Assembly (NCBI RefSeq): GCF_033473495.1
Contig: NC_088937.1
Span: forward strand, 4,175,516 to 4,239,515
DNA length: 64,000 bases
Direction: 5' to 3'
DNA from: Cercospora beticola
Taxonomy: Eukaryota; Ascomycota; Dothideomycetes; Mycosphaerellales; Mycosphaerellaceae
A model generated the notes under the pieces. That model was given only the letters and a program-made list of their open reading frames with translations, ran no database searches and was not told the origin of the DNA. Position numbers and translations under genes: made by a program. Positions 58,510-64,000 of the stretch are shown here, piece by piece; position 1 is the first letter of the stretch; every line of letters begins with the position of its first letter.

Positions 58510-60535
58510 CAAACACACAGCCTGCGGCTTGATGGAAGATTTCTCGTCATGTTCTATGTCGTTCCTGGTTTCGCTGCCATCAATCAAGCGTACTGGTGCT
58601 CAGTGAAGTGTCGATTAAGTGTCTTCTGACCGGAAATGCGGTTTTCTCACATATCTGCTTGTCCATCGCACATTCTGTAGCTTAATTGGGGCTGCCCCAT
58701 CATGTTCTGTAGTGTCTTCAGCTTTGCTGATATCGATTAAGTGTGGTGCTGCCCGATGAAGTGTCGATTAAGTGTCTTTTGACCAAAGATGCGATTTTCT
58801 CACTCACACAATCACCACTTCATCGCGCACCCTATGGCTTGATTGGAGGTTCGTCGTCGTGTTCCGTGGTGACTCCAGCTTTGCAGCTGTCAATCAAGTG
58901 TGCTGGTGCCCGGTGAAGTGTCGATTAAGTGGGTTCTGGCCAGAAATACGGATATTCTTCGCATGTCACATAATCGTCGTCTAATCACGCACCCCGCGGC
59001 TTGATTGAAGCTACCTTATCATGTTCTGTGGTGTTTCCAGCTTTTCTGCTGTCAATCAAGTGTGCTGCTGCCCGGAGAAGTGTCGATTAAGTGTATCCTG
59101 GCCAGGAATTCGTCCTATGGCACATCATTATCGTCTAATTTCGCGCCCCGCGGCTTGATCGGGACTTTCTCGTAATGTTCCATGTTGGTCCTGGTTTGGC
59201 AGGCCCCGATCAAATGTGCTGCTGCCTGTTGAAGGCTCGATTAAGTCTCCTCTCGCCGGAAATGCGATTTTCTTCGCCGATTACCTAATCGTCGGTTAAT
59301 CAGGCATAAGGCGGCTTGATTGAAGGCGATCCAGCACGTACTATGTTGCTGGAGACTCCGCCGCCACCAATCAAGTGTGCTCCTCCCCGGTGAAGACCCG
59401 ATTAAGCGTCATCTGGCCGGAAATCCGATTTCTTGCGCATGTCGCACACACCACGAAGCAAGCGGCGCTCTTGGGGCTGCGTCAATAGCGTCAATGCTTC
59501 CAAGAGTTCTCTCCATCAGATGGGATCCCTCTTTCCCCTGGGAAAGTGCCGATCAAGTCTTCTCGCCTAGAGTACGCCTTGCCCGGCATGTCGCATAAAC
59601 GTTCCTTCATTCGAGTGCCACCGACTTGATTCATAGCTTCCAGAAGTCTTTGGGGTTAGAGTATGTTGCTCCTGGCTCAATCAAGTGCGCTGTGGTCCAA
59701 TGAAGCGCCGATCAAGTGTCCTCTGGCCCGGAATACGCCTTTCCCGGCATGTCGCATAATCACCGGTTGATTCCAGTGCCACCGACTTGATTCATGGCTT
59801 CCAGAAGTATATAATGCTCGAGAATGTTGTTTTTCGTTCGATTAAGTACGCTGCTGCCCAATTAAGTGCTAATTGAGTGTTGTCTGGCTTGGAGCGCCCT
59901 TTTTGCACATGTCGCATAATCATCGCTTGATCCGGGTACCGCCAACTTGATTCATGGCCTCTCCAAGTCTCTGAGCTTCAGAAATGTTGCCATGCCATCA
60001 ATCAAGTGTGCTGTTGACCGGTGAAGTGCCGATTAAGTGTCGTCTGGCTTGGAGCCCGCTTTTTCCGCATGTCGCATAATCGTCGCACGATTGACGTACT
60101 GCCAACTTCATTCATAGTCTCTCGCAGTTTCATGGAGTCGGTGATGTTGCCTTTTCATCTATCAACCATGCTGCTGCTCGATTAAGTGTCGATTAAGCGT
60201 GTTCTAGCGTAAGGCGATTTTGGGCCGCAGATCGCAAGATTTTCATCAGAGCACGCTGGCACCGACTTGATCCATGGCGTCCGGCCGTCTTTGAAGATCG
60301 AATTCGCTCCTTTTTAACCGATTAAGTATGCTGCTGCCCAATAAAGTGTCGATTATGTGTCTGCTAGTTTCAGCTTAGTCCGCATACCGCGTCGTTGTCG
60401 TTCAAGGAGGACGCCACCCGCTTGATTCATAGCACCCTATAGTCTCTGAATGTCCAAAATGTTCCTCTAATATTAATAAAGTGTGTCGCAGCTGAATTAA
60501 AAGCCGATAAGTCCTTTCCGGCTAGGACTACGCTT
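58510..60535 (+). repeat. Subtelomeric satellite, ~160-bp unit, about 13 intact copies
   Basis: A recurring element (T/C)CGATTAAG or close variants is found at about 58611, 58764, 58921, 59083, 59237, 59399, 59549, 59709, 59869, 60029, 60189, 60349 and 60503. Spacing is 150-163 bp, and several intervals are exactly 160. Each unit also contains CATGTCGCATAATC-like, GGCTTGATT and TCAATCAAGTGTGCTGCTG-like blocks in fixed order. Units differ by many substitutions. No open frame persists through it, so it is non-coding satellite DNA. Confidence 0.9.
58838..59060. repeat. Inverted dyads inside satellite units
   Basis: Each unit carries CTTGATTG(A) and, 43-45 bases later, its reverse complement (T)CAATCAAG. 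Two clear pairs are 58838-58845 with 58891-58898, and 59000-59008 with 59052-59060 (9 of 9 bases). Later units keep degraded versions (for example ACTTGATTCAT). The arms could form hairpins or be symmetrical protein sites. Confidence 0.7.
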
Positions 60536-60760
60536 CTGCTATATATCGTATAATCGATATAAAGATAGCGTTAGACTTACTTTATTAATAATCGATCGAA
60601 GTCTTAATACTCCGAGAGTACGTCTCTACTATTAATTATATATACTAGTATGCAATAAAGTATCGTTATAGCGCTTAGCGCGTAGAGTAAGACTTCGTTT
60701 CCTATATATCGTACGAGTACGGATCTCTAGGTACTACTATATATCGAGTATAAAAGGCGA
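60536..60760 (+). repeat. Two RIP-mutated satellite units continuing the array
   Basis: The satellite block CATGTCGCATAATC of intact units appears at 60542 as TATATCGTATAATC. All three differences are CA to TA or TG to TA. A second TATATCG lies at 60705, 163 bp further, the satellite spacing. Other blocks of the unit are recognisable but altered in the same way. Confidence 0.7.
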
Positions 60761-61590
60761 CGATCGTACGAGCCTTAGAGATACTTAAGAGTTACGTCGG
60801 AGGTCTCTTCGTAAGAGTAGTTCTAATTCCTCTCCTAGATCGGTTAGATATACTAGCTTATCCGGTACTCTAGACTAGTTAAAGTATATTATAGAGATAC
60901 GAATTAGGACAAGACGGATATAAGAGGGAAATATTAAGTCGGCGTATAGTGCTATATATAGTATTATATAGAGTACTCCGGATACTAGTAGAATATAGGA
61001 TCTTAGGCGAATAGGTAGATTTTAGAGCAAATAGATAGATTTTAGTACGAAAGAGCTATATTTTATAATAGTATTATAGACTCCTCTATTTTATTATATA
61101 TAAGCGATAGGCTTTCTTAAGTTACTCTAGTAAATAATATCGAGGTTAGTCTAGTACTCGGTATAACTAGATTACTCTAGTAAAAAATATTAAAGTTAGA
61201 AATTACTTTTTCTTTCTATCTTTTTTTTAAAAGTATTTAAAGAGAAATTCTTTAGTTTTTTATTTTTCTATAATACTTTAAACTATTCTCTATTAAAGAA
61301 AATTTAAAAAAAAAATATTTAATTCTTATTTTATTAATAAATAAAGAATAGAATTTATATTTTTAACTATATTTCTAGTAGAGTAATTTCTATTTCCTAG
61401 TTTCTATTCTAGTAGTATTTAACTCTAGTCTTTAATAAGTAATTCTATAAGCTTTAAGAACTATAGTATTCTAATAAATTAATATACTAACTAATTTAAG
61501 TTCTTATTATTTTAAATATAAACTAATCTAGTTTCTTATTATTTTAGATACTTTTCTAAGCTTACTAAAAGTCGTAGAAGAGCCTAGCTC

Positions 61591-61598
61591 TATATAAG
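61591..61598 (+). promoter_or_regulatory. Possible TATA box for the AT-rich frame
   Basis: TATATAAG stands about 120 bp before the apparent start position at 61717. A pyrimidine-rich tract (CCTTTTTCTT, 61621-61630) lies between, as in fungal promoters. In such AT-rich DNA this could be coincidence. Confidence 0.3.
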
Positions 61599-61716
61599 AC
61601 TAATATTCTTCCTTTTAATTCCTTTTTCTTAGAGTTATATTTCTATATCTATTCTAGAAAAACTACTAAACTATTTATTCTATACTACTTAAGTATACTA
61701 CTTAAACTACTTTAAA

Positions 61717-62973
61717 ATACCTTCCTCTACTATTAGTAACTATAATAGACTTAGTAATTATACTCTAGAAAAGTTTAATAAGCTCTTAGAAAATAATAAA
61801 CTTTATACTAATAAAGACTTTAAAAATATTAAATCTAATATTATAGAAACTCTAGAAAATACTACTTTAGATTATAATAAAAATCTTAAACTACTAGTTT
61901 ACTCTAACTACTCTACTACTATAGCTAATAGTACTTCTACTATAGTAAAATATTTAAAAGTAAGTATTCTAAAAAATATTTTAAACTAATTTACTAATTA
62001 AGTATTATAGAAATATTTATATACTAAAGAAGAAAAGAAGTACTATAATAGTAAAGAATTTACTAATAAAGTAGAACTATTTTTAAAAAATAAAGATATA
62101 CTAAATAGTAGTAATTATTCTAGTCTAAAATTTATAAAATATAATATTTATTTTTATTCTAACTTAGAACTAAACTTAGAAGCTTTTAAGTACTACCTTT
62201 ATAATTTTATTAATTCTACTAGAAAGAATATATCTAAATACTTAGTAGAAAAATATAATTATAAAAGTTCTAATATAAAAAATATTAATATAATAGAAGA
62301 TATTCCTATTCTTATTATTAAAAGTTTCTTTAATAATTCTAAGTACTTATTTATACCTCGAGGTTTTATTAAGAATAGACTCTCTTCTAAGAGTTCTAGT
62401 AGTATTTTAAATAATAACTCTTCTAATAAAAGTAGTATTTCTAATTATAATAATACTTATAACTCTATTAAAGCTAGTACTATTTCTAAGCTACTTAACT
62501 ACTCTAATATAAATAAAGACAAAGATTATTTTAATAGAACTACTAAGTACTATCGGTATCTAGAAAATAAAGATCTATTTCTACTTTATAAAACTATAAA
62601 TCTAAAAACTATTCTAGAAGATTCTTTTCTAGAATTCTTATATAATACTACTTTAAATCTAGATTTAGAATATTCTCTATTTATTAAAGATCTATTTCTA
62701 AGTACTAGAGTAGCTATTAATACTTACTATACTAGTAAAAATATTATAGAAATTAAACTTTTTAAAGAATTAAATATAGCTACTAGAAGAAACGATTTTA
62801 AATCGATTAGTATATTTATAGTCTATATTTATACTATTTATAAAGAAGATACTATTACTTTAGAAGATAAGAGTAGTCTAATAACTACTAGTTTAGAAAA
62901 GCTTCTAATAGAAATAAAAAAGTTAGAAGACTACTATATTATTAATAGAAAAGAAGCTATATTTAGAATCTAA
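61717..62973 (+). pseudogene. Long AT-rich open frame with an intact intron, lacking any ATG (RIP-altered gene)
   Basis: Frame: 61717..61959, intron 61960..62010, 62011..62973 (stop TAA), 401 codons. The 51-bp intron starts GTAAGT, contains CTAAT-type branch sequences and ends TATTATAG. It holds the only three in-frame stops, and both sides are in the same phase. The second exon alone is 320 codons without a stop, although random DNA of this AT content should stop every 10-15 codons. No codon for Met, Trp, Cys, His or Gln occurs. Tyr, Ile, Leu, Asn, Ser and Lys dominate. An ATA (61717) in good context (TTTAAAATACC) stands where a start would be expected. No family is recognised; a recurrent charged/hydrophobic pattern continues to FRI at the end. 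Normal translation is doubtful without an ATG. Confidence 0.6.
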
Positions 62974-63109
62974 GTAGTAAGACCTCGATACTTAGAATTA
63001 AATAAGTATAGTACTTTCTCTAGCTCTAGATAATACTTTACTATATAGTATTTTACTACTTAGCTTAATTAGCTATATTAACTTATTATATACTATATAT
63101 TTATATCTA

Positions 63110-63545
63110 TTATATATTACTATATATTTATATATTATATATTCGCTTATTATATATTATTATATATTCGCTCGTTATATACTACTTATTATATATTCGC
63201 TTATTATATATCGTTATATATTTACTTATTATATATTCGCTTATTATATATTTTATTATCGTATACTACTTATTATATTACTACTTATTATATACTACTC
63301 GTTATATACTACTTATTATATACTACTTATTATATTACTACTTATCGTATTACTACTTATTATATTACTACTTATTATATTACTACTTATTATATTACTA
63401 CTTATTATATTACTACTCGTTATATTACTACTTATTATATTACTACTTATTATATTACTACTTATTATATTATTATATACTACTTATTATATACTATATA
63501 TTATATATTATATACTATATATTATATATTATATATTATATATTG
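63110..63545 (+). repeat. AT-rich minisatellite (15-bp unit TACTACTTATTATAT and variants)
   Basis: Tandem copies of TACTACTTATTATAT run from about 63262 to 63480, with some units carrying TCG for TTA. They are flanked by related TATATATTCGCTTAT units (about 63136-63245) and a pure TATA-type end. It is typical low-complexity chromosome-end sequence. Confidence 0.8.
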
Positions 63546-63796
63546 CCTACTCTATATAAAACTTCTATATACTATCGAGATACTTTTACTACTATTAAAG
63601 TAGATATTATCTACTTACTAAGCTCTCTATAAACTAGATATCTTTACTTTAAAGTCTATCTAAGAATATAGTATTAATTACTATAGTAGACTATATAGGT
63701 ACTTAAGTAAATAACTAGAAACTCTATTAGTAGAGTTTATAGTTTTATTCTTATTAAGTCTATTAGTCTACTAACGATAATATAATTAATCTTACT

Positions 63797-64000
63797 AAGG
63801 GTTAGGGTTAGGGTTAGGGTTAGGGTTAGGGTTAGGGTTAGGGTTAGGGTTAGGGTTAGGGTTAGGGTTAGGGTTAGGGTTAGGGTTAGGGTTAGGGTTA
63901 GGGTTAGGGTTAGGGTTAGGGTTAGGGTTAGGGTTAGGGTTAGGGTTAGGGTTAGGGTTAGGGTTAGGGTTAGGGTTAGGGTTAGGGTTAGGGTTAGGGT
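63797..64000 (+). repeat. Telomere, (TTAGGG)n, right chromosome end
   Basis: About 34 perfect TTAGGG repeats run to the window edge. The G-rich strand reads 5' to 3' outward, so this is a true right-hand chromosome terminus and not an internal telomere-like tract. The junction sequence is TTACTAAGGG, with no recognisable subtelomeric gene between the minisatellite and the telomere. Confidence 0.98.

What the first reader, a model, noticed from the sequence alone, without database searches (positions are those of the whole stretch)
61717..62973. A 401-codon open frame with a spliceable intron, inside DNA stripped of CpA and TpG
Seen directly: one frame stays open for 81 + 320 codons, interrupted only by a 51-bp segment with GTAAGT and TATTATAG ends, phase 0, which contains the only stops. 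The frame has no Met, Trp, Cys, His or Gln codon, exactly the residues whose codons need CA or TG. Established: RIP turns CAA/CAG and TGG into stops, so a normal gene hit this hard should be full of stops. Inference: either the family was already purged of Gln/Trp/Cys by long exposure to RIP while under selection (a RIP-hardened gene), or it is still translated from a non-ATG start. The likely start site is now ATA. Either option would be unusual, and I know of no described family matching it.
Basis: partly seen in the sequence, partly recalled or inferred. Interest (0 to 1): 0.9.

Follow-up and report, generated by a model that had tools for sequence, protein, structure and literature searches.

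The report
Fossil gene purged of RIP targets
Beside a fungal telomere lies a 400-codon reading frame that kept no internal stop codon in DNA where a genome-defence mutator has erased nearly every CA and TG, which suggests a gene that evolved to withstand that mutator and later lost its start codon.

Summary
Window 61717-62973 carries an 81 + 320 codon frame split by a 51-bp GT-AG intron-like segment, with no M, W, C, H or Q, in a block with 8 CA/TG in 3.3 kb. It is not chance: 0 of 15,000 simulated blocks had a frame of 200 codons, and the frame holds 39 TAY codons but no TAR. Thirteen long frames of this window, CA/TG-saturated in silico, gain 3.7 or more stops per 100 codons. Exon-2 coding phase also appears in exon 1.

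A 118-bp relative of the 5' end sits in ordinary DNA on contig C1. Its one CA/TG is exactly an ATG aligned with the window's ATA. So the start was ATG and its source was already purged. The window copy's three coding differences (M to I, T to I, E to K) are all C-to-T type, and a telomere-oriented subtelomeric repeat overwrites its 3' end. I read it as a once-functional, RIP-purged gene, now dead, in a Cercospora-like genome. "RIP-hardened" is supported for the past; non-ATG translation is not. No protein relative was found; function and selection remain inferred.

The parts
60500..61050 (.). Inner edge of the CA/TG-depleted block; 35-41% GC with CpG kept from 60500 to 60999; partly the mutated end of a diverged ~160-bp tandem array
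   Evidence: 100-bp profile; 60531-60673 matches the neighbouring array (68% over 147 bp, E 2.6e-7) only after the array is CA/TG-saturated in silico, with no hit at E 1e-3 without that
61060..61716 (+). Very AT-rich upstream region; its last ~55 bp match the C1 relative
61717..61719 (+). ATA at the site where the relative on C1 has ATG: former start codon
   Evidence: alignment; the 24 bp just before it score -4.7 bits in frame
61717..61959 (+). Exon 1, 81 codons
   Evidence: +21.8 bits of exon-2 phase signal in frame; reached by 1 of 1218 windows of other depleted blocks
61960..62010 (+). 51-bp intron-like segment: GTAAGT donor, TACTAAT branch-like site, TATTATAG acceptor, phase 0; holds the only 3 in-frame stops
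   Evidence: splicing not shown
62011..62956 (+). Exon 2 up to the repeat boundary, 315 codons and one base, with a Ser/Asn-rich stretch in the middle
62957..63798 (+). Subtelomeric repeat, proximal boundary at 'CTATATTT'; supplies the last codons and the stop of the frame; cut by the telomere
   Evidence: 21 of 21 matches with E <= 1e-30 (this copy included; matches, not copies) point toward their nearest telomere; 9 of 9 copies fetched share the boundary motif (one, L061, by motif only), have other 5' flanks and run on past the point matching 63798
63799..64000 (+). TTAGGG telomere array

Best explanation
It is the remnant of a protein-coding gene with one small intron that lived in subtelomeric DNA exposed to RIP (CpA-to-TpA mutation on both strands) while selection kept its frame open. 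Copies that gained a TAA or TAG were lost, so Gln and Trp codons were replaced by other routes; Met, Cys and His codons were converted or replaced. The end state has no CA or TG except the one that cannot be replaced, the ATG start. The C1 fragment preserves that state. In the copy at C3R the ATG was then hit (ATA) and the 3' end was replaced by a telomere-oriented repeat, so the gene is probably dead. The frame stays open because nothing is left in it for CpA mutation to turn into a stop. Shown: the frame, coding phase, intron form, CA/TG loss, ATG in the relative, and the repeat boundary. Inferred: RIP as the agent, the selection, the order of events, and loss of function.
For: Open frame far beyond chance. 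39 TAY against 0 TAR. Zero stops against 23.9 expected at the pooled rate of 13 CA/TG-saturated window frames (Poisson P0 about 4e-11); the lowest rate of the 13, 3.68 per 100, still predicts about 15, and the longest stop-free run among them was 173 codons. Exon-2 phase signal in exon 1, negative in frame just upstream of the ATA, and negative in all six frames in the intron, two upstream windows and the repeat window tested. The five top-scoring coding-like windows in other depleted blocks carry 2-4 in-frame stops per 80-81 codons. C1 fragment: 118 bp, one CA/TG, at the ATG; the 10 kb around it has about 17 per 118 bp and none of 958 windows has fewer than 7. All three coding differences from it are C-to-T or G-to-A in the window copy.
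Against: No homologous intact gene was found, so purifying selection is not measured. Coding sequence is not significantly better conserved than upstream between the two copies (3/63 against 8/55 mismatches, p = 0.11). GC is about 19%, far below the 39% reached by saturating the window frames, so CA/TG mutation alone does not make this sequence; it was natively AT-rich or also mutated elsewhere. Scarce G-starting codons (12.6%) are what plain mutation would leave too. Two windows on C5L score higher for coding phase than exon 1 in a finer rescan (26.7 and 25.5, trained on both exons), so the phase signal is not unique. If one original target site had survived by luck, it would fall on the ATG about 1 time in 17 (my estimate). 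The gene is single copy today, while RIP needs repeats or spread from them.
Confidence: 0.6

Rival explanations
1. The frame is the coding region of a mobile or selfish subtelomeric element, not of a host gene, and shed its RIP targets in an arms race with the host; the C1 fragment is a scrap of another copy.
For: Telomere-adjacent, AT-rich together with its upstream region, a second partial copy elsewhere, no protein relative.
Against: No full second copy found in the genome; no Pfam family at E <= 10, transposase or reverse transcriptase included; the neighbouring repeat is a separate unit with other 5' flanks elsewhere.
Confidence: 0.22
2. The gene is still expressed, from a non-ATG start or an unrecognised upstream exon.
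For: Frame intact and intron well formed.
Against: The relative places ATG exactly at the ATA; the only ATG on the + strand of 60501-63800 is at 60650, with a stop one codon later; the only ACG within 61693-62973 is at 62792; the 3' end is overwritten by a repeat.
Confidence: 0.07
3. A neutral pseudogene whose ancestor happened to contain almost no Gln or Trp, saturated by RIP after death.
For: Only Gln and Trp loss is informative, since Met, Cys and His vanish without stops in saturated frames. G-starting codons are scarce and 49 of 50 follow an A-ending codon, as plain CA/TG mutation could also leave.
Against: 13 of 13 window frames of 300 or more codons gain at least 3.68 stops per 100 codons when saturated; about 15-24 are expected here and 0 are seen.
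Confidence: 0.1
4. A chance open frame in AT-rich DNA.
For: Low-complexity frames of up to 187 codons occur in the neighbouring repeat.
Against: 0 of 15,000 simulations reach 200 codons; coding-phase signal; no TAR among 396 codons.
Confidence: 0.005

Closest known systems
RIP-degraded genes and transposons in ascomycete AT-rich blocks (established knowledge)
   Same: CpA/TpG loss on both strands, subtelomeric setting, TA enrichment
   Different: Those carry TAA/TAG stops, as the top coding-like remnants in other ends of this genome do; here there are none.
Transposon variants proposed to have shed RIP target sites (Microbotryum Gypsy elements, PMC5381629; listing and two passages seen)
   Same: The proposed principle: selection for copies that lack RIP targets
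   Different: There a suggestion for retrotransposons; here a single-copy frame with near-complete loss of targets and no retrotransposon domain found.
RT domains without stop codons among RIP-hit non-LTR elements of Mycosphaerella graminicola (PMC4522978; three passages seen)
   Same: Open frames surviving amid RIP-type transitions (11 of at least 119 RT sequences, as the paper says)
   Different: Those are multi-copy elements; here the targets themselves are gone from a 396-codon frame.
Effector genes hit by RIP leakage in AT-isochores, as in Leptosphaeria (recalled; only listings seen)
   Same: A gene beside repeats exposed to RIP
   Different: No Cys, and nothing found that marks it as an effector; near-total purge of CA/TG.

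Membership tests
RIP-mutated DNA | CpA and TpG depletion with TpA excess on both strands | tested here: met
   CA/TG near zero; TA observed/expected 1.1-1.9 in 250-bp steps from 60500 to 63749
RIP-mutated DNA | Target is or was repeated, or lies beside repeats | tested here: inconclusive
   Adjacent to a multi-copy subtelomeric repeat, but the frame and its upstream region are single copy apart from the C1 fragment and a 63-bp inverted self-match
RIP-mutated DNA | Sexual cycle, RID/Dim-2 dependence | not testable with these tools
   needs genetics
Ordinary RIP-killed gene | In-frame TAA/TAG at former Gln/Trp codons | tested here: not met
   0 of 396 codons; about 15-24 expected
Functional protein-coding gene | ATG start | tested here: not met
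   ATA at 61717; ATG in the C1 relative
Functional protein-coding gene | Expression and splicing | not testable with these tools
   no RNA data
Known protein family | Match to Pfam, PDB sequences or public proteins | tested here: not met
   Pfam 0 families at E <= 10; PDB, exon 2 only, best E 0.13; proteins none at E <= 1 among 7994 candidates scored (capped) and 689; the database does hold Cercospora proteins

The most novel reading that the evidence does not exclude
A gene or selfish element that evolved coding-level immunity to RIP by discarding every codon and codon junction that contains CA or TG, leaving the ATG start codon as its only vulnerable site; working copies may exist in related strains.
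Probability: 0.35. Interest if true: 0.85.

Novelty: new variant of a known kind. Interest (0 to 1): 0.62.

Why it matters
Whether genes or transposons can escape RIP by shedding its target sites has been suggested (PMC5381629, passage seen). In the listings of the searches made here I saw no case carried to near-complete loss. A frame without any stop-prone codon, plus a captured fragment whose single remaining target is its start codon, would show both that such escape is possible and what its limit is: ATG contains a RIP target and cannot be recoded. It also gives annotators a signature to look for: long frames without M, W, C, H or Q in depleted blocks, which gene finders that need an ATG would miss.

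Tried and rejected
Protein relatives: Pfam, PDB sequences, two protein searches, viral and prokaryotic contigs (23 and 90 stretches matched a pattern, none confirmed): nothing. A control search with a window enzyme found Cercospora proteins (96% identity to C. kikuchii), so the database covers the group. AlphaFold2 on exon 2 alone gave mean pLDDT 35.8 and was not used. tblastn of the protein against the 20 contig ends gave a best hit of 34.7 bits outside the frame; 20 of 30 shuffled proteins did better (29.3-61.2 bits), while the reversed protein reached 41.2 bits only at the frame's own place and 30.8 elsewhere: rejected as composition. The idea that the downstream repeat is a solo LTR was dropped, because the nine copies fetched continue past the point matching 63798 and the 21 strong matches point to the telomere. 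Better coding than upstream conservation between the two copies is not significant.

Full report
What the window is. The window is the right end of contig C3 (4,239,515 bp) of a 36.07 Mb, 10-contig genome. All 20 contig ends carry TTAGGG arrays. A window enzyme is 96% identical to a Cercospora kikuchii protein and 86% to one of C. zeina, so the fungus is Cercospora-like; this rests on one protein. 17 of the 20 ends, sampled for 10 kb each, hold a block of at least 500 bp almost free of CA and TG (105,000 bp in all, 121 CA+TG; blocks were chosen as stretches of 200-bp windows with at most 3). This is the signature of repeat-induced point mutation (RIP) of the CpA type; that RIP is the agent is inference from established knowledge.

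The observation. Between 60500 and 63790 there are four CA and four TG. One frame runs open from 61693 to 61989 and from 62011 to the stop at 62971-62973. Taking 61717 as start and 61960-62010 as intron gives 81 + 320 codons without M, W, C, H or Q. The segment left out is 51 bp, begins GTAAGT, ends TATTATAG, has a TACTAAT branch-like site, keeps phase 0 and contains the only three in-frame stops.

More than chance. Ten Markov settings trained on other ends or on the block itself, 1500 simulated blocks each, gave no frame of 200 codons; the longest was 142. In 101,750 bp of real depleted sequence from 16 other ends the longest frame is 146 codons; the eight frames of 110 or more listed there fall in stretches that match the subtelomeric repeat. 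The window's own repeat copy carries low-complexity frames of 173, 185 and 187 codons, so such repeats do exceed the simulations, but not near 320. Within the frame, TAT/TAC occur 39 times and TAA/TAG never, while other NAY and NAR codons are 67 and 74 (p = 5.8e-11); frame 1 shows no such bias (p = 0.69) and frame 2 a weaker one with many stops (64:89 against 11:43, p = 0.005). Position-specific base composition alone predicts 17 stops (P of none 2.7e-8).

A coding signal. Base composition by codon position, trained on exon 2 alone, gives exon 1 +21.8 bits in the predicted frame. It gives -4.7 bits in frame for the 24 bp just before the ATA, and negative values in all six frames for the intron, for each of two upstream windows and for the downstream window tested. 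Of 1218 windows from other depleted blocks, one scores as high. In a finer rescan trained on both exons, two windows on C5L scored above exon 1's figure (26.7 and 25.5), so the signal is not unique; but the top five windows elsewhere (two on C5L, then C4L, C10L, C7R) each carry 2-4 in-frame stops in 80-81 codons, which is what RIP-hit coding DNA is expected to look like.

What other frames would become. Saturating 13 stop-to-stop window frames of 300 codons or more (not all need be genes) with CA-to-TA and TG-to-TA yields 3.68 stops per 100 codons at least and 6.0 pooled, with a longest stop-free run of 173 codons. For 396 codons that is about 15 to 24; the frame has none. Absence of Met, Cys and His is expected from CA/TG mutation with or without selection; only the absence of Gln and Trp, which turn into stops, speaks for selection. 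The frame's GC (about 19%) is well below the 39% reached by saturating those frames, and the inner edge of the block (60500-60999) stands at 35-41% GC. So the gene region was either AT-rich from the start or mutated for much longer and beyond CA/TG.

The relative with an ATG. One partial relative was found in the genome: C1:702933-703050, 118 bp, in ordinary DNA. It aligns over about 55 bp upstream and 63 bp of coding sequence and has ATG where the window has ATA. Its only CA or TG is that ATG, while the 10 kb around it has about 17 per 118 bp and none of 958 windows below 7. Its source was therefore already depleted, noncoding part included, with the start codon kept. In the coding part the window copy differs at three of 63 sites, all in the C-to-T or G-to-A direction: M to I, T to I, E to K. 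Read from the sequence, one is a CpA change and two are CpT changes. Upstream the differences are mixed (8 of 55 plus a gap); the contrast in divergence is not significant (p = 0.11).

The 3' end. From about 62957 the sequence is a subtelomeric repeat. Of 40 matches listed for it, all 21 with E <= 1e-30, the window's own included, point toward their nearest telomere; among the 19 weaker ones a single 37-bp match points away (the list is a lower bound). The nine copies fetched share the boundary motif (L061 by motif only), have other 5' flanks and run on past the point where the window's copy meets the telomere. Of the four further copies seen in the sampled ends, C5L, C9R and C10R also run on; C4R does not in the stretch compared. 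The last four codons and the stop of the frame are the repeat's. The gene probably lost its own 3' end there.

Reading. The best explanation is a gene whose frame was kept open by selection while RIP acted on it, until no target was left but the start codon; then the start was hit and the end was overwritten. The frame is still open because CpA mutation can no longer make a stop in it. Whether the gene served the host or a mobile element cannot be told: no protein relative turned up by Pfam, PDB sequence or public protein search, the single-sequence fold of exon 2 is unreliable, and no full second copy was found in the genome. Selection is inferred from absent stops, not from dN/dS.

Against known things. 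Selection for transposon variants that shed RIP targets has been suggested for Microbotryum (PMC5381629, two passages). RT domains without stops amid RIP-type mutations are reported in Mycosphaerella graminicola (PMC4522978, three passages). The crapaud paper considers that RIP-diverged copies could stay functional and so escape, but says its data do not show the pattern expected (PMC10787394, two passages). Passages of PMC7882544 and PMC12543289 did not bear on such a frame. In the listed rows (the listings are capped) I saw no title or abstract start that describes a frame purged of all CA and TG; the library holds open-licence papers only.

Noticed in passing
window 58521-60197 and 60531-60673: Diverged ~160-bp tandem array; a CA/TG-stripped piece at 60531-60673 matches it, so the sharp edge of depletion near 60500 appears to lie at or inside the array.
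   Followed up: partly
window 62957-63798; ends of C1, C2, C3, C4, C5, C7, C9, C10: Subtelomeric repeat family with a fixed proximal boundary; its 21 strongest matches all point toward the nearest telomere. The window copy joins the telomere at a CTAA shared with the repeat, which suggests telomere healing.
   Followed up: partly
17 of 20 contig ends of G000: Very complete CA/TG loss: 121 CA+TG in 105,000 bp of blocks chosen for depletion. Block GC runs from 20% to 35% and may reflect older and younger classes.
   Followed up: partly
window 61717-62970: All 24 Glu codons are GAA although 14 of 50 Lys codons are AAG, all 30 Thr codons are ACT, and 49 of 50 G-starting codons follow an A-ending codon; not fully explained by CA/TG loss.
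   Followed up: no
C5 left end (L041), about 5.7-6.3 kb in the telomere-right orientation: Coding-like but stop-bearing depleted stretches with a phase signal as strong as exon 1's: perhaps a RIP-killed gene or element.
   Followed up: no
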